From contig CAIIXF020000003.1 in assembly GCA_903813345.2 (NCBI GenBank), positions 4,244,109-4,308,108 of the forward strand: a DNA stretch of 64,000 nt. Direction: 5' to 3'. Shown piece after piece: positions 881-63,680 of the stretch. The stretch comes from Owenia fusiformis (Eukaryota > Annelida > Polychaeta > Sabellida > Oweniidae). A model generated the notes under the pieces. The model was given only the letters and a program-made list of their open reading frames with translations, did not search any database and was not told the DNA's origin. The first letter of the stretch is position 1. Every line of letters begins with the position of its first letter. The translations under genes and the position numbers were made by a program.

Positions 881-1305
881 TTTGAGAATCTCTTACTTTG
901 AGATGAAGGATAAAAAGGTTTTGATAAGTGAAAAGGGGGAACTTGAGATTGCCATACGTGTATAGTATATTTTATCACATTGCTTACATTTGTGTAGTGC
1001 CCCGTTGATGCCCACTGCCCGTCGACTGCCTGCGCAATGTACCAGTTATACCCAGGGTTATTTATCTCATTCCACCAGCCATTCACCCTATACCTATGAC
1101 GTAACAATCGTATATACATATGTATTACATACCTAGCGAAGCATTTGTATGGAAGTCAATGGGAAAGTTAGCGAGCTATATCCACCGATATTGCCCGATT
1201 ACCCCGATATAGCCCGCTTACCTCGTTTTGATATTAGATTTCTTTAATAACCATGATAATATCATGACGTCACGTCATTGATACAAAGTAACCATGGGAA
1301 CATCA

Positions 1306-1417
1306 GTTATGTCACTATGACGTGAAATATGCCTTCGTTCTTGCCCAAATATAGAGCCTCCCAAGGTCGGCCTATATTGGGAGAACTCAGGCATATTTCA
1401 CGTCATAGTGACATAAC
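1306..1417. repeat. Foldback hairpin with 29-bp perfect arms
   Basis: Positions 1306-1334 and 1389-1417 are perfect reverse complements of 29 bases. The 54-base loop holds a second, imperfect stem (cccaaatata against tatattggg). Such compact palindromes are typical of MITE or foldback elements. No clear target duplication flanks it. Confidence 0.85.
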
Positions 1418-1694
1418 CTCTAAATACAAAATATTATTGATTTATTGACCCTTAACTTAAAGCAAAAATATTTACTATAAATGTGTTTATACCACTTTGT
1501 TAGCCAGCATTTCACATATTTTTCACAACAGTTTGGCGTTTATAGTATCATCACCATATGCAGACTTCGCTAATGAAAGTGAATCGATATGGACGCAAAA
1601 GCTGGACCGGCACGGAATAACGGTTATATATTTGAATTTAAAACAGCCATGTGTCAAATTTGAAATCTATGATGCCCCCGAATAATTTAGAGTA

Positions 1695-2425
1695 TCACAA
1701 ATTCATCGTGTACACATAGGCACTGGGGTGATATTGATCTGACATCATGATGCAGAGAAATCGTAATTTTACTGAGAGGCTATACAAAAATAGAATCATT
1801 ATAAGCCACCTTAAAGTACTTACTCTAACTTTTCTTTTGTTATAGGCCAGTTGATCCCAAACATGTTTTCAGAAGCCATCACGCACTCAAAACCATCATG
1901 TGCATTCGGGCATGTCACAGCGTGCTTCATTGAACATACTTCTAAAGTATCACTCCATTTCTATAACATGACTCAAATAAGTTAAACATTGAATTCACCA
2001 CGCCCTCAAAACCATCATGTGCATTTGGGCAAGTCACAGCGTGCTTCATTGAACATACTTCTAATGTATCACTCCATTTCTATAACAAAATTGGAATTAG
2101 TTGAAAATAAAATTTTATGTTATAGATGAAATTCAAATTAGATAATAATGAATGTATTTACATAATGAAACAAGAGTAGTAGATTTGATATTAATATGTG
2201 TGTATTTAATAGCAATGATTACAAAAATCATTAAGATAATCTTAATAAATTACCAATAAGTTCATATTCGATGGCGGTCCAGGTTCAACAAGCGTACGCA
2301 GTCTGTTCATTTCATCCAAGATAACGTCTCTGATGTCTTGTGCGCTCAAATCTCCAGCATCCTGGATGCGGTCTTGTCCCTTCACACTAGTAAACGTCAA
2401 AAGTACAAATACTCCCACAATTGCG
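1695..2425 (-). CDS. Putative small secreted cysteine-containing peptide, multi-exon
   Basis: Three minus-strand exons join with matching phases: 2425-2254, 1960-1824 and 1779-1695 (stop TGA at 1697-1695). The first follows an acceptor ending tttaag. It encodes a hydrophobic stretch (AIVGVFVLLTFTSVKG) resembling a signal-peptide core and cleavage region, then an acidic, helical-looking segment rich in D, E and R; its donor is ttg|gtaatt. The second follows gttatag and carries three Cys (motifs EVCSMKHAVTCPNAHDGFEC); its donor is gttaga|gtaagt. The third follows ttttgtatag and adds one Cys. No initiator Met lies in the first exon, so a start exon must lie upstream. Secretion is inferred from the hydrophobic core; the family is not recognised and no function is proposed. 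Annotated as a partial gene model with an unknown 5' end. Confidence 0.5.
1988..2079 (-). pseudogene. Duplicated copy of the cysteine exon
   Basis: This repeats the exon at 1960-1824, including the acceptor (ttatag before 2079). In the shared part the two copies differ at three bases, all third-codon positions and all synonymous in the minus-strand frame. After HDGFE the sequence diverges: the next Cys is Gly and no donor site is visible. It is probably a dead or unused duplicate, although an alternative exon cannot be excluded. Confidence 0.45.
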
Positions 2426-3975
2426 CTTAAATAAAGAATGTTGAGTTATTGATATGACATATGATGTCTCTAATGTCTTGTGCGCTCAAATCTCCAGCAT
2501 CCTGGATGCGGTCTTGTCCCTTCACACTAGTAAACGTCAAAAGTACAAATACTCCCACAATTGCGCTTAAATAAAGAATGTTGAGTTATTGATATGAAAT
2601 TTGATGTCTCTAATGTCTTGTGCGCTCAAATCTGCAGCATCCTGGATGCGGTCTTGTCCCTTCACACTAGTAAACGTCAAAAGTACAAATACTCCCACAA
2701 TTGAGCTTAAATAAAGAATGTTGAGTTATTGATATGAAATATGATGTCTCTAATGTCTTGTGCGCTCAAATCTCCAACATCCTGGATGTGGTCTTGTCCA
2801 TTACACTTGTCAACATCAAAAGTACAAATACTCCCACAATTGAGCTTAAATAAAGAATGTTGAGTTATTGATATGAAATATGATGTCTCTGATGTCTTGT
2901 GCGCTCAAATCTCCAGCATCCTGGATGCGGTCTTGTCCCTTCACACTAGTAAACGTCAAAAGTACAAATACTCCCACAATTGCGCTTAAATAAAGAATGT
3001 TGAGTTATTGATATGAAATATGATGTCTCTAATGTCTTGTGCGCTCAAATCTCCAGCATCCTGGATGTGGTCTTGTCCATTACACTTGTCAACATCAAAA
3101 GTACAAATACTCCCACAATTGCGCTTAAATAAAGAATGTTGAGTTATTGATATGAAATATGATGTCTCTAATGTCTTGTGCGCTCAAATCTCCAGCATCC
3201 TGGATGCGGTCTTGTCCCTTCACACTAGTAAACGTCAAAAGTACAAATACTCCCACAATTGAGCTTAAATAAAGAATGTTGAGTTATTGATATGAAATAT
3301 GATGTCTCTAATGTCTTGTGCGCTCAAATCTCCAGCATCCTGGATGCGGTCTTGTCCCTTCACACTAGTAAACGTCAAAAGTACAAATACTCCCACAATT
3401 GCGCTTAAATAAAGAATGTTGAGTTATTGATATGAAATATGATGTCTCTAATGTCTTGTGCGCTCAAATCTCCAGCATCCTGGATGCGGTCTTGTCCCTT
3501 CACACTAGTAAACGTCAAAAGTACAAATACTCCCACAATTGCGCTTAAATAAAGAATGTTGAGTTATTGATATGAAATATATGTCTCTAATGTCTTGTGC
3601 GCTCAAATCTCCAGCATCCTGGATGCGGTCTTGTCCCTTCACACTAGTAAACGTCAAAAGTACAAATACTCCCACAATTGCGCTTAAATAAAGAATGTTG
3701 AGTTATTGATATGAAATATATGTCTCTAATGTCTTGTGCGCTCAAATCTCCAGCATCCTGGATGCGGTCTTGTCCCTTCACACTAGTAAACGTCAAAAGT
3801 ACAAATACTCCAACAATTGAGCTTAAATAAAGAATGTTGAGTTATTGATATGAAATATGATGTCTCTAATGTCTTATGCGCTCAAATCCCCAGCATCCTG
3901 AATGTGATTTTATGTCAACATCAAAAGTACGAAGACCTCCAAAATTGTACTCCAAAACCAAGAATGTAGAAATTA
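2325..3975. repeat. ~140-bp tandem array of 12 units built from the signal-peptide exon
   Basis: The word atgtctct recurs at 2464, 2604, 2744, 2883, 3023, 3162, 3302, 3442, 3581, 3720 and 3860, after a first unit at about 2325. The period is 139-140 bp. On the minus strand each unit holds the pyrimidine-rich acceptor (ttctttatttaag) and the first part of the exon at 2425-2254 up to AQDIRD. Only the lowest-coordinate unit continues to the end of the exon and its donor. Two variant types exist (cccttcacactagtaaacg and ccattacacttgtcaacat), and the last unit is decayed. The second variant has a 1-base shift, so most units are not constrained as coding sequence. Confidence 0.92.
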
Positions 3976-4199
3976 AAGGCAGTGATTCCTTACCATATAT
4001 GGTAAATTAAACTACAACCACATTTGGATGCGGCCAATTATCTGCTGCAAAAGTTCCATATATTAATTTACTTTTTCAAGCAAGGTGGAATCAACATTTT
4101 AAATTTAAAACTGCAATAAGATTCAGATTAATAAATAACTGTGACAAAGGTTAGCAAATTTAATACATGAATTCAAGAGATATCGGAAAACTAGGTCTA

Positions 4200-4692
4200 A
4201 CACCCCAGTCACATTTGTCGCACGGCGGCCGCAAGTCGACCGCAGAACAATTAAATCGGTGAATTTCTGCGGCGATCGTAGAAAAACTACGCTCGCCTTG
4301 CGGCCTCCGTACGGCGTATACAGATTTTTACAGGCCGCAGGGAAGGCGTAGAAATTATAACTCGGAGTTATAATATTTGTTCATTTCTGAGGTCCCCGTA
4401 GAAATCAACTGGCTCAACAAGATTGAATCATTATTTGTCAATGTTTCACGATCACTTTTCATTTGATATTACATCCTAGCACTTTGAATAACATTTATAA
4501 ATTGTCCTGATGTAAATAAAATGAAAAAAACTATTATTTATCAATAGAAATTTAAAATTCACCGTGCGGCTGCCGTGGGAAATGTGACTGCAAAAGTATG
4601 AGAGCGCAGAAATTCTGCGGCGAGCGTAGAAAAGCTACTGGCCGCAGAAATGATAGACCGCAAGGTCGCCGTAGGAAATGTGACTGGGGTGT
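4200..4692. mobile_element. 493-bp MITE with TA target duplication
   Basis: The termini are inverted: acaccccagtcacattt at the left and its reverse complement ending at 4692, each flanked by TA (4198-4199, 4693-4694). Just inside both ends lie GC-rich words (tgcggcg, cgtagaaa) repeated in both orientations, in contrast to the AT-rich core. TA duplication suggests mobilisation by a Tc1/mariner-type transposase; there is no internal coding sequence. Confidence 0.8.
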
Positions 4693-6852
4693 TAGATGTC
4701 AGATTCTGTGGACATTTAAACTTTCAAACATCCTATTACACTATTTGCTAACTGATTTTTTATTTTATATTAGATATTGAAGCCCTGCCTATAAGAAGAT
4801 ATAACAGTATTGATCTACAATAAATGCGTCTTTGCACTTTTTTAATGAAATGTTGTATAATCTAAAGGACCGCGAGTTGTTGAGTTTTTTCATGCATTTC
4901 GCTTGTGTTTTTCACCTAAAAAACATTGACAAACTTTTAAACGTTTTATTGACTATAATATTGCACTATATAACCCAGAAACTATTTCTCATTTTTAAGG
5001 ATTATCTATTGATTAACACACATGTATTTTCATTTTTCAAACTTCAGAGAGCTGGGAATCATTGATTGCGAATGCTTTTGAATAATATAAATGCATGTAT
5101 CATGTATGCCAATAATTTCTCAAACTGTGTAAATGGTACCCATTCCTTAATCCCCATTCCTTAATCTCCAGAATCTTCCCTTTGGGGAATTTCCCATAGT
5201 AATTCAATGGTATAGTTCCAAGCAGATTTTGAGATAACCGGAAAGTTAATCATCTTTAATACACACCTTATTGGGATGTGATATAAACCAAAATAACCCA
5301 AAAAGTGTGTATTAATGATTAACTTTTCCTTAAAATTATGTTATAGCCACTCACCTCTTCATGTTGCTTTGTCCAGTCTAAAACACGAAACAATATTTTG
5401 AAACAACCCTGCCATTTATAAACCAGAAAGCACAATTGGTATTCGCATGAATCATACAAAAAAAAATCCGTTTTTCATTTTTTTCATGCGAACCCGTGAC
5501 GCCAGATAAGGCGCTTGCGTTTTTGCTCACTTTTGATATATGAAATATCTATTTAACACCAGCATTTTAACAAATCGTGCATTCAATGATAATACGCAAT
5601 ATTACAGAAATTGCTACTGTCGATTTTACAAAGTAAATCGAACATTAAAGGTTACTTCACGACTATAATATTTCCCGAGGCAGGGCTGACGGACAAACGT
5701 TTGTCAAATCAGTGTTTTTCAGCGTTGTAAACGAATTCTAAACACAAATAACAATGTCTTTACCCAAATGAGTGATTTTGATGTGATTAGTTGTTCTAGA
5801 AAAATGTATAGGTTGCACACTCTCATTCATTAGTTTTGAGTTTTTTCTTATCGGAAGAACGTTGCTGACAAAAGTGTTTGCGATGTACAATAATATACAT
5901 GTACATCGCGGTTAGGCTTGCGTATGGCTGTTATGTGTGCTTTTAGTTGATCCTTTTGTCTATTCGGTTCTAGTCCTGTAGTCACGTTTCGTTTCAAACA
6001 TGCATCTACATGTGTATGTATGCATGATTACCAATCGGAAATAAAATGGGGTGTTCGAGTGTAAACATCCGTCACCTCTAATCAGATCGACTAACAAAAC
6101 ACCCTTGTTGCTTTTATCGAGTTTGCCGAGAGCTTGAACGTCAGCACGTTCAAATCAGGTAAATGAGTGCCGTAATCCCTAGGTTGGAGTTGAGACGCGT
6201 GTACATAGATAACAAATTAATAAAATGAAAGTGCACCCCGTCATATGGGAAACAAACCCCACTATCACAAACGTGAAATGAAACAATGTCTTATACCCCT
6301 CCCTCACTACCAAAGAAGCCAATGTTGTTTGGATCTCAACCCTATGGAAACAATTATTTTAAAATGTTTGTGAAATTACATCCCTTAATTTTTTCTCTGT
6401 AGAAGTCTAGCTTGTTCGAGATAATTTGCAATTAGTAAGATATAAAAGATTTATCGAGAATGAAGTTTTTTAATGATTATGTGCACGAATTTGCATTTTA
6501 GAAAAACAGCCCTCTCCTTTCGTCGAATAAAATTAACGATAATATAAAAACTGACTGCGATAAGAATGGGTTTGATACTTCATGCAAATATTATTCAAAA
6601 CGTAGAATGCATCACAAGAAGATGTATTATTACCACCTTGCCGGGCCAGTTCTAGGGGTTTTAGTGCTAGTTTAGAAGGCGTTCATTTTACTATATCGAC
6701 CTGAGAAATGTGTGACGTCATAGTGGTGGTCTATATGGACCGGTCTAGAATATATTCTGGACCGGCAATTTTCCCCGGGAAATTAGATATCGTTCAATGC
6801 GTAAGATTTTCTTGCTGTTTCAGTCCTGGTCGTTAACGGTGGTAATAATACT
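4693..6852. other. AT-rich intergenic stretch with small palindromes
   Basis: No gene supported. It holds a hairpin with ~24-bp arms at 5241-5266 and 5304-5327 (aagttaatcat...taatacacac) and a short palindrome near 5881-5908 (cgatgtac...gtacatcg). The open frames here are short, low-complexity and without splice support. Confidence 0.5.
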
Positions 6853-8559: not shown

Positions 8560-9485
8560 GAAGTGGTTCGTACAAAAAAAACGCAACCCAAAGAAATCGC
8601 GATATCTTAGAAAATACTGTTCTAATTATGTTCATATTTTCAGGAAAGAAAGAAGAGACTGTGTATGTATAGCCCCTGTTGTTAGTTAGTAGTAAAAAAT
8701 GATGTCTTGGACACCTGCTCAAAAGACAGTTGTACTAGCAAAATACGAAAAACGTGAATGGAAAATAACTATATCTTGGAAAATATTAATTCAATTATGT
8801 TTATTTTTTCAGGAAAAGAAAGAAGAGACTGTGTATGTATAGCTCCTGTTGTCAGGAAGTTATGAAACATGATGCCTTGGACACCTGCTCAAATGACTGT
8901 TGTACTAGGAAAATCTGAAAACGCAGTCAGAGGTGACTACCACAGCAATAAAACCTAATAACTTTCTAACTATGGTGTTTTGGCACTTCAGATTTAGCAC
9001 AAATTATCGTTATTATATGTGTGGTGAATTTGTGAAGTTTCATCAAAATCACTCCAGGGACTTTATAGTCATGGTCAAAATGCCTTCTTAAGTCTCCCTG
9101 AACCAGGGCGTTTGACTGCGATTTCAAATCATTTCAGCCATGACAGTGAAGTCCCTGAAGTGATTTTGATTTCACTCTACAGATTTATCATACAGTGAAT
9201 GAAGATTGTTCGTGCCAAATTTGAAGAGCCAAAACACTATGGTTAGGAAGTTATTTTATTTTTTTGCGGTTGCAGTCACCCCTGACTGCGTTTTTCGCAT
9301 TTTGCTAGTACAACTGTTTTTTGAGCAGGTGTCCAAGGCATCATGTTTTACAACTATTCATTGACAGGAGCTATACACACACAGTCTCTTCTTTATTTCC
9401 TGAAAATATGAACATAATTGAACCAGTGTTTTTCAAGATATAGCAATTTCTTTGGGTTGCGTTTCTTTTGAACACCCTGTATATA
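8560..9485. mobile_element. Long foldback element with ~300-bp inverted arms
   Basis: The right arm read in reverse (from acagggtgttcaaaagaaac near 9485) matches the left arm from about 8572 onwards: acgcaacccaaagaaat, the agagactgtgt...tatag block and gacacctgctcaaa occur in both. The left arm contains an internal tandem duplication of about 190 bp (8585-8770 and 8770-8925). The arms meet near 9085-9120. It is inserted in the 3' region of the LINE relic, so it is younger than that insertion. Confidence 0.8.
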
Positions 9486-34800: not shown

Positions 34801-35431
34801 CCCTGAAAGGTGCATGTAGGAGATGGTTGAAAGGTAGTTGGAAGTAGGAGAAAAGGGTTTAGGAAGAATAAAGAATAATAATGCAGGGGCCTCCTAATAA
34901 TATAGTTATTGTAACCATGTGAAACTCAATAAATATTTGACAAAAGGGATGCTTCAACCTCTCCCCCTGCTTACGTGCATGAGCTTAATATATTTTGTAT
35001 TTTATCAAAATTATATCTATGTTTTAATGATCCATCTACGTACTCATAACGCTGGAATGAACCATTCCAGGCACAAAGCTTGTATTTCTTTATTGGAAAA
35101 TAATGAATTAGCAAGTATCAAATGTGGTTCGCTTTATCAGATTCTTTTGTAATTATTTCCATGAATTTGGTTACTATATTTGGGTGAGCTCCATTTACAA
35201 AACAGAATGCACTAAGATGAATGGTCCTTTGGCTTACTGTGGGAACTTGTTTAAATCATTGAGAACTTGTTGATAGTACTTGTTTCCTTCAAACAACCAG
35301 AGCATTTTTTAATTGGAATAAATTTTCCCAATTAAGCTTTGAAAACGAATTTCGCTGAATTGTCAATTGTCAATGAAATTGACTGACCTGCTCCTGTTCC
35401 TGGATCAGCTCAACTTGAGTCTTGAGATCAT

Positions 35432-36150
35432 TGCAGTAATGGTAGTGCAGGTCTCCTCAGACAACAACCAGACAGCAGCTACTTGGCTATCTTCATTGCA
35501 GTGATGGTAGTGGAGGTCTTCTCAGACAACAACCAGACAGCAGCTACTTGGCTATCTCCATTGCATTCATGGTAGTGGAGGTCTCCTCAGACAAGAACCA
35601 GACAGCAGCTACTTGGCTATCTTCATTGCAGTGATGGTAGTGGAGGTCTTCTCAGACAACAACCAGACAGCAGCTACTTGGCTATCTCCATTGCAGTCAT
35701 GGTAGTGGAGGTCTCCTCAGACAAGAACCAGACAGCAGCTACTTGGCCATCTCCATTGCAGTGATGGTAGTGGAGGTCTCCTCAGACAACAACCAGACAG
35801 CAGCTACTTGGCTATCTCCATTGCAGTGATGGTAGTGGAGGTCTCCTCAGACAACAACCAGACAGCAGCTACTTGGCCATCTCCATTGCAGTGATGGTAG
35901 TGGAGGTCTCCTCAGACAACAACCAGACAGCAGCTACTTGGCCATCTCCATTGCAGTGATGGTAGTGGAGGTCTCCTCAGACAACAACCAGACAGCAGCT
36001 ACTTGGCTATCTCCATTGCAGTGATGGTAGTGGAGGTCTCCTCAGACAACAACCAGACAGCAGCTACTTTGGTATCTCCATTGCAGTGATGGTAGTGGAG
36101 GTCTCTTCAGACAAGAACCAGACAGCGGCTACTTGAGTGTCTCCATTCCC
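35432..36150. repeat. 65-bp minisatellite, 11 copies
   Basis: aca(a/g)aaccagacagc(a/g)gc recurs at 35461, 35526, 35591, 35656, 35721, 35786, 35851, 35916, 35981, 36046 and 36111: an exact 65-base period with no indels. Substitutions are few (acaagaacca against acaacaacca; ggccat against ggctat). Since 65 is not a multiple of three the array cannot be a simple protein repeat. Confidence 0.95.
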
Positions 36151-57882: not shown

Positions 57883-60325
57883 TTAATTTGATGGAAACTT
57901 ATAACAGGCCTGTACAAATTGCATCACTATATCTATCAGGATTTTCTGAGAATCAATAGTGAGTTCATTTTCATAAATTAAGTATTTGACCTGTTCTGTC
58001 TTACTAGAAATAAGTTGAGTATCAAACAATAAATTTTGTTCACGAAGTGCAGTCATCATTTTATTACGTTCATGGGTATGGCGAGGGCAGGTTAGAATGA
58101 AATGCTTTGTGTCTTCAGTAGAGCCACAGAGGCATTTGTTGTCAATTATTCCAGTAAAATTATGAGTAAAGAAATGGTCTTTAAGGGCAAAATCAACTCG
58201 AAGCCTATTTAGCAGTTTTTCGTTGGTTCTACTTAAATTTAGTTTTGTAGTTGGTATGAAGTTTGAAATAGGGATAAATATCTGTTTAATAGAGCTTTTG
58301 AATCTAGAAATGGTTTGAATTTCACGAAAAGTCTGGCTTAGTTGGTTCCAATCATTTATAAGTTTTAAAACTGGTGCTTTGGAGAGTCTCATTGAAATAT
58401 TTCTTGGGCAGGAAAAGGGTAAAGAGTGTCTTAAAATTCTAGTTGCTTGGTTGCGATGTTGGTCAAAAAGACTATGGACATAATAAGGCACTTCCTTTCT
58501 TACAATTTTGAACATCAGTCTTAGATTTTTTTCGTGTCTTTTGTCAGTAAGCGATTTCCACTGTAAACATTTTAAAGTTTTTGAGGTGTTAGAGCCATGC
58601 AGTACCCCAGCACATATAACAGCAGCTTGGTAGTGGATTTTATCAAGCTTTGACAAGGCCGCCAAGGATGACGATCCGTAAATGGAGCTACAATAGTCAA
58701 AATGAGACGCCAAATATGAATTATACATTATTTCAAGATGGTGCGATTGTATTTTGTTTGATATGAGCTTCAAAGGATTTAACAGTTTTTGAACTTTATT
58801 AGACAGATAGTTTATATGGTCATTAAAAGTCAAATTCTCATCTAAGATGAAACCCAGGTGCTTGTGTGATTGCTTTTGGGGGATCATTTCACCATCAAAG
58901 TAAAGCGGAGACATTTGAATATTTTTTAGTCGGGTTGAGCGAAAAACTAAATGAGCACTTTTAGAAGCTTTAAATTTCAATTGCCAGGTTCTAGACCATG
59001 CACTTAAAAGATTTAGGTCATTTTGGAGTTGGCCAGTTTGATTACCAGAAGGGTGAAAGAAAGAGTATAAGGAGGTATCATCTGCATAGATAAAAGTTTT
59101 CGAGGTCAGAGTGTCAGGGAGGTCATTTATGTATATCAGAAACATCAGGGGTCCGATTATGGAGCCCTGAGGCACACCGGAGTTTATGAAGTGGTCAGGA
59201 GAGAAGTTTGATGTGTGATCATCTACAGTGACACAGACTTTTCGATTTTCTAAGTAAGAAGAGCAGAGGTCGGCTAATTTACCTTGAATTCCATATGATT
59301 TCATCTTGTGAATGAGTAAGTTATGCGGTACAGTATCAAAAGCAGACGCCACGTCTAAATAAACAGAATTAACACAGTTACCTTTTTCCATTTCGTTAAA
59401 GATATAATCAGTTATTGCTAAAAGTTGTAGCTCAGTGTTGTGTCCTGGAAGAAATCCAGATTGAAATTGATAAAGAAGGTTATTTTCAAGTAGATGCGTT
59501 AAAATGCGATTATGCACAACTTTTTCAAAAATTTTGGAAAAAGTGCTTAGCAAAGTAATCGGTCTATAATTCTCAACTTGAGATCTATCAGACTTCTTAT
59601 AAATTGGAGAAATGTTTCCAAGTTTCCAGCAACTAGGAAATTGGCCACATGCAAAAATCATGTTAAACAATTTTGATAACTGGAAGGATAATGCTTCCTG
59701 GGCTATTTTTGTCATTCTGTTATTAATTTTGTCAAGACCACAGGCTTTATCGCGATCAAAGGACTGGATTATTTGAAGAATTTCATCTGGATTGGTAGAT
59801 AAATGGTCAATTGATATTCCAGATCTATTTGGAAAATGTGGAAGTGCATCGTTATCCACTTGGTTTAAATTATGATATTTTGAAGAAAAAAAGTTAAGGA
59901 AACACTCAGCTTTTTCACCCTCAGTTGTAGCTATGTGATCTGAAAAATTGCACTTCAAACTAGGGAGTAAAGCATGAAAGGTTCTGGATAGAAAAGAATT
60001 AACTATGTTCCAGTATTGTTTTCCTTTACAGGTTGATTCATTAATCTGTTTTACAATATTTTCCTGGTAATTTAATTTTGCCTCTTTTATTAAGGATTTG
60101 ACCTTTTCAGCTTGAGCAGTGTAGTTGTCAAAAATAGTTGTGTCATTTTTTGATTTGGTTTTCCGATAAAGTCGTTCTTTCTTATTGATTTCGCGTTTAA
60201 TTTTTGAGTTCATCCAAGGTTGATCATTTGCATTTAAAATTGTTGTTTTTTGAGGAATGTATTTTGAAAATATGTCAAAAATATGACAAGAAAAGCTTCC
60301 AGTTGTAACATTAATGATTATATAG
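57883..60325 (-). pseudogene. Retrotransposon ORF2, reverse-transcriptase part
   Basis: An uninterrupted 776-codon frame (Met at 60213; the frame is open upstream to about 60325). RT blocks in order: NYRPITLLSTFSKIFEKVVH, QSGFLPGHNTELQLL, VYLDVASAFDTVPH (motif A Asp), NSGVPQGSIIGPLMFLIYIN (motif B), FIYADDTSLY (catalytic C, 59077-59090) and HLGFILDENLTFNDHI (thumb). Near the C-terminus, KCLCGSTEDTKHFILTCPRH is the Cys/His motif common to this group. All catalytic residues are present; only the upstream frameshifts separate it from the endonuclease. Confidence 0.92.
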
Positions 60326-60826
60326 TTCAGTCAGGTCAAAATTACGAATGTTGGAATTTATACCCTCAATATCAGCCTGGTCATATTTCCAAATGGTTTT
60401 CTTTAATTTGTGTCTCTTACTGAGTTTTAACGGAAGAGTGGTCAAAATAGTAGAGTGGTCGGTATTACCAATAGGGTCAGAAACAACCAATTCCCTTACG
60501 AGAAAAGGCTTGTTAGAAAGGTCAATGCAGGTTCTTGAGTTTCTTGTTATTCTGGTAGGCTCTTTTACTAACTGGATAAGATTTAAGTTTGATAAAATAG
60601 AGTCAAGTTTATTGCCTCTCGAGTCAGTAGTACCTTCAGGCCACCATTTTTGATGTTTGGAATTGAAATCACCATTTATAATTAGGTGGTCACATTTTAT
60701 CTTGGATGCTTTGGAGAGATTTTCCCTTAGATGGTCAAAATAAGCATTTTCCTCATTTACATTCATACTAGGAGAGCGATAGTGTACACCAAATAGTATT
60801 GAAGTATTTCTAATTTTGATATTAAC
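60311..60826 (-). pseudogene. Retrotransposon ORF2, C-terminal half of the endonuclease
   Basis: The middle frame carries HLIINGDFNSKHQKW (the GDFN catalytic block) and GNTDHSTILTTL (the DHS block) of APE-type endonucleases. It joins the upstream frame at about 60826, where a tg dinucleotide seems to be missing, and the RT frame at about 60311-60325. Confidence 0.88.
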
Positions 60827-61574
60827 CCAAAGACTGGTTATCAGTATTCAAATCCGGCATGGGAATGTAGGTAAGGTCAGATTTAATGTATATCATGAGC
60901 CCTCTACCCCCTTGATGATAAAGGGGAGAGTGAAAGTCAGGAAGTAAGTAGTTTTCAGAAATAATCTTGTCATTCAAATTGCCTACTTCACAGAGTCCAG
61001 CTACCGATACCCCATGTTTTCTTAATCTATGTTTAAAACTTTCAAACCTGATACCTTCCCCACTGCTTATGCTGTTAATGTTTGAGAAAAGAAACTTGAG
61101 ATCATGCTGCATGGTACATGTAGAGTGAGGACCAGGATGAGTTTCAATGTCGCCGGCCTGCAAGATTAAATCACTTTGGTCAAAAATGTAGACTGAAGTT
61201 TGAAAAATCAAAACAGTGAGTGTGAAATTGTCAAAAATATTTGCATATTTTACATTGCCTATAAGCTTCATAAGCATTTGCATTGACATAAATAATGTAA
61301 CAAACATGACTGTTAACAAGTAGATTATGACCACAATAGCCATGAGCCTAGTAAATTCATTAAAAAGTTTATTGTAATTATTTGTCAAATCAATGCAGGA
61401 AATTATATCTAAGGTGAGTAGAATAAGGTATATAAGCATTAAGACTGTTACAAAACTTGGACTTGACATTTGCCTCTTAGTACCATTGTTTTTGATTTTC
61501 AAACCTGGTATTTTGATTCTCGAGTTAAAAATTCCAATTCTGCTTCGCCACGACTGAATGTCGACTGCACCCAT
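60822..61574 (-). pseudogene. Retrotransposon ORF2 start: membrane segments, 2A-like motif, endonuclease N-terminal half
   Basis: From Met 61574: a basic start, then about three hydrophobic segments (for example VTVLMLIYLILLTLDIISC, IVVIIYLLTVMFVTLFM and NFTLTVLIFQTSVYIF). Next comes LILQAGDIETHPGP, a 2A-like sequence, and then the endonuclease blocks FLFSNINSIS and VSVAGLCEVG (the catalytic Glu). In related elements a functional 2A separates an N-terminal peptide from the enzyme, and the hydrophobic leader can act as a signal or anchor. Here the Asn of the usual NPGP is His. The frame stops at 60822 because of a frameshift. Confidence 0.85.
61128..61154 (-). promoter_or_regulatory. 2A-like translational recoding motif (GDIETHPGP)
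   Basis: Matches the D-(V/I)-E-x-N-P-G-P consensus except His for Asn. The upstream residues QA-G and the Leu-rich context also match the class. Activity with His is doubtful, because this Asn is nearly invariant in active 2As. Confidence 0.7.
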
Positions 61575-62559
61575 TAACCTATGCCTGACTTGACTGCACT
61601 GTTGGTTAACTGAAAGGTATATATGCTAGTAACAAATGGTAAAAAGCTAAGTAAGCAGTATTTAGAAATGTAAAAGTAATCCCCATCCCCAACCCAACCT
61701 CTATGATTGATAATTTCCAAAAGTATGCACACATGTAGTGTGTGCATGACAATAAGGAATATGGTTACATTACACATGGTGTTATGCAACAAAGGTTTTT
61801 TGATGCAAAGATATAGGAAGTACAGCTCAGTTATGGAATCATAATTTCAGTAGCAAAGTACCAATTTCAGGATAAAAAGTAGCCTGGTAGCCAGCAAAAT
61901 GGACTACATGACACATGAAATACAGTGGGCAGCAATATTAAAACAAAAACAAAAACAGTAATACATGGGAACAATACAAAACTTGCTTGTGATTCATCAT
62001 AATCATAGTGTATGCTTGCAAGCTACTGTAACATTTATACATTACAGTATATAGACTCTAATAGAGTAATACATACTGGAGAAAAATAAATCATAAATAG
62101 TAAAATGTTAGTCAGGCTTGTATATAAAATTCGAAAAACGAACTTCTCCAGTAGTTCTATTTACAAAGGTGTTCGTTGAGAACAGCATTATATACAGAAG
62201 GAAAAAGAACTCACCGTGTTTTTAGATTCAAAAGACAAAAAACGTGAAATATAAATTTGATAAAAGCACACTTCCGGTTTCTGGAAGGTCAAATAGTCAC
62301 GTGACAGAGAGATGTAAACAAAACAACTGGAGAAAATCGTCAAGTTTAGCACGAGCAGCAGCTCATTAAGACGTTCATTTGTCAGTGAGAAAAGTTATGT
62401 TCGGTTATTTTAGGAAACTATATTGATAGTTTATACATTGATGTTACTTTCTGCATGGTGACCAGCGTTTTCTATAACTTAAATCAACAAGGGTAACAGT
62501 GGTGAGTGAGGGAATGTTCACGAGAAAGTTATGGCAATCGTCCAAGCACACCAAGGTAA
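61575..62559 (-). other. ORF1-ORF2 spacer with a 72-codon frame ending in TAATG
   Basis: The spacer is 985 bp, long for this kind of element. A small frame (61792-61574) ends with a TAA that shares its last A with the ATG of ORF2 (taatg), an arrangement used for termination-reinitiation in some non-LTR elements. The 72-codon peptide has a hydrophobic start but no known domain. No promoter or nested element was recognised. Confidence 0.5.
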
Positions 62560-63525
62560 TTAAGACCTGGCAATGACAGAGTCAATGTTATCGTTGATTG
62601 AGAATACTTTGATTGTACCAGATTTGAGTTTACCATACACTTTCATGTTATTGTACCATGCTTGATCAATATCGTTGTGCTGCTTGACTTCTTTCAGTAG
62701 TACTCTGTTTCTCGGACTGAGATCATGGTAGATTCTCACATTGGTGCCTTTTAGGTGGCGCTTGTTTGACATTACTTTGTCCTTAACAAGTCGGTCAAAG
62801 AATTTGGCTATGATTTGTCGTGGCTTCCCATCTCTTCCAGGCAAACGGTGGGCAATTTCAATGTGGTCAGGTTCAATCATAGCTCCTGCTGGCAGGTGAT
62901 CATTTAGGGTTTTACAGAGAGTGTCAATACACTTTTCAACAGACTCATTTTTGTCATCAGCGATCCCAACGGCACGTAATGTGGATTTCCTGCTGTATTG
63001 AGCATTATGATTTACCTCAAGGGCTAGCTGATCTTGCTTAACAGTCATATCAGTATGGGATTTCTCCAATATCATGATTCTGGACTTCAGAGTGTCATTT
63101 TCTTCACGAAGTTGTTTTAGATCAGTAGATAGCTTTATCGTGGATTTTTCAATTTCATGCTTCACCATATCACGCATTTGAGACATTATCTGGGTGTTAT
63201 TTTCATTAAGTAATGTTCTCATAACGGTAGTAAGAGAGAGGATAGTTACCGGTTGCTCAGAATCCATATCATGTGGATCGTCTGTGGTGCATGTACCTGA
63301 GGATGCTTCATCAAGAGCTTTCTCAAAAACGTCATTGTACGGTACTGGCGAAGTTTCACTGTCCTTACTTGGGAACCCCGCTTCTCGTCTATTTCGCTTC
63401 ACGGGTATAGTTATCGAGGATGGCTTATCAAAGTCCTGTGCAAGTTGTCCACCATCTTGGTTTTTATCAGCACGAATTTTGACGAAGTCGGTAATCGCCG
63501 GTTGGTTGTCCTGTAGTTTGGACAT
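62560..63525 (-). CDS. Retrotransposon ORF1 protein (coiled coil plus L1-ORF1-like C-terminal region)
   Basis: 321 intact codons. Residues ~1-90 are polar and probably disordered. About 95-175 form a heptad-rich coiled coil (LREENDTLKSRIMILEKSHT). Then HNAQYSRKSTLRAVGI and DHIEIAHRLPGRDGKPRQII with VKDKVMSNKRHLKGTNVRIY match the RRM-like/C-terminal region of L1-type ORF1 (Transposase_22-like) proteins, whose role is trimerisation and RNA chaperoning. It differs from the esterase-type ORF1 of many CR1 elements. Start chosen at the first Met, 155 bp from the element's 5' end. Confidence 0.85.
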   Translation of the reverse strand: MSKLQDNQPAITDFVKIRADKNQDGGQLAQDFDKPSSITIPVKRNRREAGFPSKDSETSPVPYNDVFEKALDEASSGTCTTDDPHDMDSEQPVTILSLTTVMRTLLNENNTQIMSQMRDMVKHEIEKSTIKLSTDLKQLREENDTLKSRIMILEKSHTDMTVKQDQLALEVNHNAQYSRKSTLRAVGIADDKNESVEKCIDTLCKTLNDHLPAGAMIEPDHIEIAHRLPGRDGKPRQIIAKFFDRLVKDKVMSNKRHLKGTNVRIYHDLSPRNRVLLKEVKQHNDIDQAWYNNMKVYGKLKSGTIKVFSINDNIDSVIARS

Positions 63526-63680
63526 GGTCTCAACTAATCCGCTGTATATCGTCTATAGATATTTATAAATGTTTTAGATTACGATAAATCGGCACAAATG
63601 TAGATATTATCATGTAAACTGAGTAATTACTCCTAGTCTTTTACAACGTGTTATTTGTTCTTGGCGCCATCTATTCGAAT

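What the first reader, a model, noticed from the sequence alone, without database searches (positions are those of the whole stretch)
1695..3975. Signal-peptide exon of a secreted-peptide gene amplified into a 12-unit tandem array
Each 140-bp unit carries the splice acceptor and the 5' part of an exon encoding a signal-peptide-like core. Only the 3'-most unit keeps the complete exon and donor, and downstream cysteine exons join it in phase. Either an exon is turning into a satellite, or the many acceptors are used alternatively (tandem acceptors feeding one donor by readthrough). I know of no standard description of a satellite seeded by a secretory exon at its own locus.
Basis: partly seen in the sequence, partly recalled or inferred. 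Interest (0 to 1): 0.72.

Follow-up and report, generated by a model that had tools for sequence, protein, structure and literature searches.

The report
Exon-boundary minisatellite in a secreted-protein gene
In an animal gene for a secreted CAP-family protein, the start of one exon and the end of the intron before it have been copied about a dozen times in a row; this is a known kind of repeat, called a mirage in amphioxus, and it most likely does not change the protein.

Summary
On the minus strand a 140-bp unit (40 nt of intron end plus the first 100 nt of a 172-nt exon) stands in 11 near-identical copies plus one degenerate outer copy. Only the 3'-most copy continues to a donor. The gene is a CAP-family (PF00188) gene: a start-codon exon (ATG at 5362), exon 2 (2254-2425), exon 3 (1824-1960) and exon 4 (988-1093) join in phase, and the Pfam score rises when they are joined. 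The repeated part encodes signal peptide and linker and ends just before the CAP match.

Readthrough from upstream acceptors is not supported: 10 of 10 meet a stop within 28-61 codons. Exon 3 has one upstream partial copy of the same design.

Such arrays are described as 'mirage' minisatellites in amphioxus genes, for example 150-160 bp units of intron 3' end plus exon 5' part in globin BflGb6. I rate this a new member of a known kind. It would extend the kind beyond amphioxus if the host is another animal, which I could not determine. No RNA or population data were available.

The parts
5355..5362 (-). Coding part of exon 1: ATG AAG AG, followed by donor GTGAGT; joins exon 2 in phase (AG+C = Ser)
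   Evidence: Sequence; donor score 12.1; the only match to ATG + 0-6 codons + 2 nt + GTRAG between 3976 and 12000 on this strand; 5 matches in the whole 64-kb minus strand under a somewhat different pattern. No transcript evidence.
2466..3861 (-). Ten tandem partial copies (139-140 bp): 40 nt of intron 3' end with acceptor plus about the first 100 nt of exon 2, no exon-2 donor
3862..3970 (-). Outermost degenerate copy (71% identity), carries a deletion; has the B state of units 4 and 6 at the three sites that can be compared
2254..2425 (-). Exon 2, the only complete one: signal peptide, linker and start of the CAP domain; its first 100 nt (2326-2425), with intron 2426-2465, form unit 1 of the array
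1969..2087 (-). Partial upstream copy of exon 3 with acceptor (exon-like start at 2079); second boundary duplication in this gene, spacing 119 bp
   Evidence: 94.6% identity over 92 nt; the intron pieces further upstream match at 72% over 29 nt (a 25-nt 100% row there is the same DNA present in both inputs and is disregarded). Reads to a stop when joined to exon 2
1824..1960 (-). Exon 3, complete, with donor AGA|GTAAGT; CAP core
988..1093 (-).

Best explanation
This is a mirage-type minisatellite inside a CAP-superfamily secreted-protein gene. A segment spanning the 3' end of intron 1 and the first 100 nt of exon 2 was duplicated in tandem, and unequal exchange and conversion then expanded and partly homogenised it to about a dozen units. 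The copies form part of intron 1. Because they lack a good donor, the spliceosome most likely passes over them by exon definition and joins exon 1 to the one complete exon 2, so the protein is unchanged. The repeated part encodes only the signal peptide and linker, and ends just before the CAP match begins. Shown here: the sequence anatomy, the open phases, the CAP match, the stops after every upstream acceptor and the mosaic variants. Inferred: the splicing behaviour, the exchange mechanism and neutrality.
For: Array and unit anatomy. The spliced 141-aa product matches PF00188 at 37.9 bits, cut-off 21.1; exons 3+4 alone score 24.6 and exons 1+2 alone have no hit, so exon 2 adds about 13 bits and the exons belong together. 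The match begins at residue 39; the repeated part ends at residue 36. 10 of 10 upstream acceptors read into a stop after 28, 48 or 61 codons; only the last is open. Best donor-like score in 2426-3975 is 2.7, against 4.0, 6.4, 7.0 and 12.1 for the four gene donors. Mosaic variants: exon position 94 C is shared only by the true exon and unit 5; position 2 T by units 3, 4, 7 and 11; the B tract by units 4 and 6 and, at the three comparable sites, the outer copy. [quoted passage not shown]
Against: No RNA evidence. The donor scores come from an approximate matrix written from memory that discriminates poorly: exon 2's true donor scores only 4.0, while GT sites inside exons 3a, 3 and 4 score up to 5.9, 5.2 and 6.4, so the 2.7 of the array is a modest contrast. 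Acceptors were not scored. The 3' end of the gene was not found: nothing CAP-like was seen by eye in the three minus-strand translations of 1-990, so a broken gene is not excluded. A product using exon 3a also matches CAP, at 26.6 bits, up to its stop. phmmer found no solved structure below E = 0.001; the best weak hit was Ancylostoma secreted protein 1, 3nt8, E = 0.026. The same amphioxus paper says cryptic sites in the repeats could be used, and that the draft assembly appears to have one such repeat wrong; copy numbers differed between two lancelet sequence versions for PGBD5, so the copy number here may not be exact.
Confidence: 0.82

Rival explanations
1. The decoy acceptors have an effect: pre-mRNA sometimes splices to an upstream unit, giving truncated secreted peptides of about 28-61 aa or transcripts for nonsense decay, so copy number tunes the output of the CAP gene.
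For: The acceptor core is kept in 10 of 10 full partial units, each in frame with the exon-1 ATG and encoding the same or a nearly identical signal core. The true exon-2 donor is weak. An intronic VNTR in human ABCA7 is reported to affect splicing (PMC5954066, title and start of abstract only).
Against: Near-identity of recent copies keeps acceptors without selection. The tails after the repeated part are junction sequence and read to stops. B-type units carry a 1-nt deletion that shifts the frame. Amphioxus mirages are said not to interfere with regular splicing (passages).
Confidence: 0.1
2. Nursery for a new exon or intron: a copy will be, or is being, recruited as a separate exon, as proposed for amphioxus globin mirages.
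For: The model is published for mirages (PMC3087553, passages). In exon 3a the sequence near the duplication junction gives a donor-like GTG|GTGAAT after 1999 (score 5.9 against 6.4 for the true exon-3 donor) that would leave an 81-nt in-phase exon.
Against: That exon-3a intron would be only 38 nt. No donor-like site in 2426-3975 scores above 2.7.
Confidence: 0.05
3. The array is a dispersed satellite that landed here, or an assembly artefact.
For: Only the 64-kb window could be searched for copies; no whole genome is held. A draft amphioxus assembly is reported to appear wrong at one such repeat.
Against: The unit is continuous with this gene's own exon 2, and no other copy exists in the window. 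Unit-specific variants argue against a simple assembly copy error, though not against a wrong copy number.
Confidence: 0.03

Closest known systems
Amphioxus 'mirage' minisatellites: globin BflGb6 and BflGb9, Adh3; also PGBD5 (PMC3087553 and PMC3902484, passages seen)
   Same: Tandem duplication of an intron-exon boundary inside a gene. [quoted passage not shown] Boundary units escape homogenisation.
   Different: Here a CAP gene, 140-bp units, 11 copies plus one degenerate (BflGb6: 6 and 3 repeat units in two haplotypes), and two boundaries in one gene affected (PGBD5 in lancelet also has repeats at two exons). Species unknown. Copy-number polymorphism and splicing not tested.
Human CBS 31-bp VNTR at an exon-intron boundary (recalled, nothing seen; the search found 0 papers)
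   Same: Tandem repeat across a splice boundary inside a gene
   Different: Much shorter unit; from memory only
CAP superfamily (Pfam PF00188)
   Same: The spliced product matches profile positions 1-89 of 117
   Different: The C-terminal part was not found in the window; cysteine pattern and function untested

Membership tests
Mirage minisatellite | Tandem repeat units span an intron-exon boundary inside a gene | tested here: met
   unit = 40 nt intron with acceptor + 100 nt exon. The boundary rests on phase and protein similarity, not on RNA
Mirage minisatellite | One genuine boundary remains intact in an otherwise open gene | tested here: met
   only the 2425 copy is open to a donor and joins CAP exons in phase. 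Tested for four exons; the gene's 3' end was not seen
Mirage minisatellite | Concerted evolution inside the array, edge unit excluded | tested here: met
   over the exon part, inner units (true exon included) differ from each other by 0-11 columns and from the outer unit by 24-31; shared variants are mosaic. Greater age of the outer unit alone would also make it differ
Mirage minisatellite | Regular mRNA splicing undisturbed | not testable with these tools
   No RNA data
Mirage minisatellite | Length instability between haplotypes or in soma | not testable with these tools
   One sequence only; no genome held
Mirage minisatellite | Cephalochordate host (the published cases whose passages I saw) | tested here: inconclusive
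   Window GC is 34.7%. The amphioxus value of about 41% is recalled; the passage seen in the paper consulted gave no number
CAP superfamily PF00188 | Profile match above the curated cut-off | tested here: met
   37.9 bits against 21.1
CAP superfamily PF00188 | Complete domain with C-terminal strands | tested here: inconclusive
   Positions 1-89 of 117; the rest was not seen in 1-990 and may lie beyond the window

The most novel reading that the evidence does not exclude
The functional signal-peptide exon is itself a member of a concertedly evolving minisatellite outside cephalochordates, so array turnover can rewrite the gene's secretion signal (including transfer of the frameshifted B variant), and the bank of decoy acceptors sets expression by copy number.
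Probability: 0.1. Interest if true: 0.6.

Novelty: new member of a known kind. Interest (0 to 1): 0.33.

Why it matters
If the host is not a cephalochordate, mirage minisatellites are not an amphioxus peculiarity, and this gene, with two affected boundaries and up to a dozen competing acceptors, is a natural test of how splicing ignores donorless copies and of intron gain by tandem duplication. Otherwise it is one more example of a described phenomenon, and a warning for gene prediction in such loci.

Tried and rejected
Satellite elsewhere: no second array in the window; no exact hit of a 27-nt unit piece in viral contigs (an unlikely place to find it). Host identification: no genome held; for the LINE reverse transcriptase in genome contigs, 8 stretches matched a peptide pattern and 0 of 8 were confirmed as relatives; Rfam at gathering thresholds and ARAGORN gave 0 matches in the window. 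Productive readthrough from upstream acceptors: rejected because of stops. Four other repeat arrays (33.6 kb, 35.4 kb, 37.1 kb, 44.3 kb) were translated and showed no evident exon structure by eye, while the 8.6-kb pair did; apart from the 483-878 array, which lies in the stretch translated, the remaining arrays were not examined. A placement simulation gave a 6-8% chance that a random 119- or 140-bp unit in 988-5362 spans one of the three acceptors. It was done after the fact with an arbitrary 15-nt margin, and I give it no weight. One row (25 nt, 100% identity between the two exon-3 inputs) is an overlap of the two inputs, the same DNA; it was dropped.

Papers: passages were seen of PMC3087553, PMC3902484 and PMC11907188. 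All other papers were seen only as search listings or are recalled; one search listed none. The original Canestro et al. 2002 paper is not held and is known here only as cited.

Full report
Observation. The array is real. TRF finds period 140, 11.3 copies, 96% matches, score 2962 at 2326-3904. On the minus strand each unit is 40 nt of intron 3' end ending in an AG acceptor (CTTTATTTAAG) followed by about the first 100 nt of an exon. Eleven exact acceptor cores exist. Ten belong to partial copies and the last (exon start 2425) to a complete exon, 2254-2425, with a donor. A twelfth, outer copy at 3863-3970 is 71% identical and degenerate, without the exact core. No further copy is in the window (best other match E = 0.08).

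What the gene is. An ATG AAG AG|GTGAGT exon ends at 5355; its donor is the strongest of the gene model (12.1 with an approximate recalled matrix). It was the only such candidate found between 3976 and 12000. Splicing it to 2425-2254, 1960-1824 and 1093-988 gives 141 codons without a stop, and every junction is in phase. The product starts with a signal-peptide-like stretch (judged by eye; no predictor was run) and matches Pfam CAP, PF00188, at 37.9 bits over profile positions 1-89 of 117. Exons 1+2 alone give no hit, exons 3+4 give 24.6 bits, and all together 37.9. A product that uses exon 3a instead of exon 3 scores 26.6 bits up to its stop. The match starts at residue 39, and the repeated part of exon 2 ends at residue 36, so the array copies signal peptide and linker only. 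The rest of the domain was not seen by eye in translations of 1-990 and may lie past the window's edge. NCBIfam, a bacterial and archaeal library, gave no hit. phmmer against solved structures gave none at 0.001 and, at a cut-off of 10, a weak match to a hookworm CAP protein (E = 0.026) and one to neuropilin (E = 1.4).

Could the upstream acceptors be used? Exon 1 joined to each of the 10 upstream acceptors and read on toward the donor meets its first stop after 28 (2 of 10), 48 (6 of 10) or 61 codons (2 of 10); only the eleventh, true acceptor is open. The best donor-like site in 2426-3975 scores 2.7 against 4.0 for exon 2's own donor. The margin is small, and the matrix is crude: sites inside exons 3a, 3 and 4 score up to 5.9, 5.2 and 6.4. 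With no good downstream donor, exon definition should favour the last copy. This is inference; transcripts could not be examined, and acceptor strengths were not scored.

How the array evolves. Over the exon part, the inner units (true exon included) differ among themselves by 0-11 columns and from the outer copy by 24-31. The true exon differs by 2-6 from the eight A-type units and by 9-11 from the two B-type units (4 and 6). Two of these columns are an artefact of the alignment at the unit's end. B units share a tract of six differences including a 1-nt deletion, and the outer copy has the B state at the three sites that can be compared. The variant at exon position 94 is shared only by the true exon and unit 5. 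These mosaics fit unequal exchange and conversion, in which the functional exon's 5' part takes part. The breakpoint mechanism itself is not shown.

A second boundary. Exon 3 has an upstream partial copy, again acceptor plus 5' exon part (94.6% over 92 nt, with more diverged intron pieces at 72% over 29 nt; spacing 119 bp). Read from exon 2, it meets a stop. It holds a donor-like site after 1999 (5.9), which would leave a 38-nt intron, probably too short. A third acceptor-plus-exon-like duplication lies at 8602-8921 on the plus strand.

Comparison. The structure has a name. [quoted passage not shown] Adh3 and other loci are cited there, possible use of cryptic sites is mentioned, and a model of intron gain is drawn (PMC3087553, passages). 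PGBD5 in lancelet has imperfect repeats over splice sites at two exons, with different copy numbers in two sequence versions (PMC3902484, passages). Of the mirage features that I could test, three are met and host identity is inconclusive. The window's GC of 34.7% is lower than what I recall for amphioxus (about 41%), so the host is probably another invertebrate, but I could not establish this. My literature searches (one search showed 15 of 22 papers) listed no paper that I recognised as reporting mirages outside amphioxus. They cover only an open-access library and were judged mostly from titles and abstract starts.

Verdict. Confirmed observation, better gene identity, ordinary mechanism, known kind. 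What remains of interest is the number of units, two affected boundaries in one gene, and a possible non-cephalochordate host.

Noticed in passing
8602-8921, + strand: Two ~160-bp tandem copies, each with a pyrimidine-rich acceptor-like site (TTTTCAG or TTTTTTCAG) and a short cysteine-rich reading after a basic run; the upstream copy has an early stop, the downstream one is open to TGA. No Pfam hit up to E = 1.
   Followed up: partly
57883-63552, - strand: Non-LTR retrotransposon: reverse transcriptase (RVT_1, 1.7e-31), an upstream ORF at 62560-63552 without a Pfam hit, and a 2A-like DIETHPGP motif in the ORF at 60822-61625 (2A consensus recalled).
   Followed up: partly
4197-4695: Roughly 500-bp element in intron 1 with 20-nt terminal inverted repeats (CTAACACCCCAGTCACATTT and its complement), looks like a MITE (read by eye).
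   Followed up: no
1306-1417: Palindromic arms (GTTATGTCACTATGACGTGAAATATGCC and its complement) between exons 3 and 4 (read by eye).
   Followed up: no
483-878: 135-bp tandem repeat, 2.9 copies, 97% matches, 3' of exon 4 of the same gene; no exon recognised in it.
   Followed up: no
35429-36147: 65-bp tandem repeat, 11 copies, 95% matches; no frame reads open through it.
   Followed up: no
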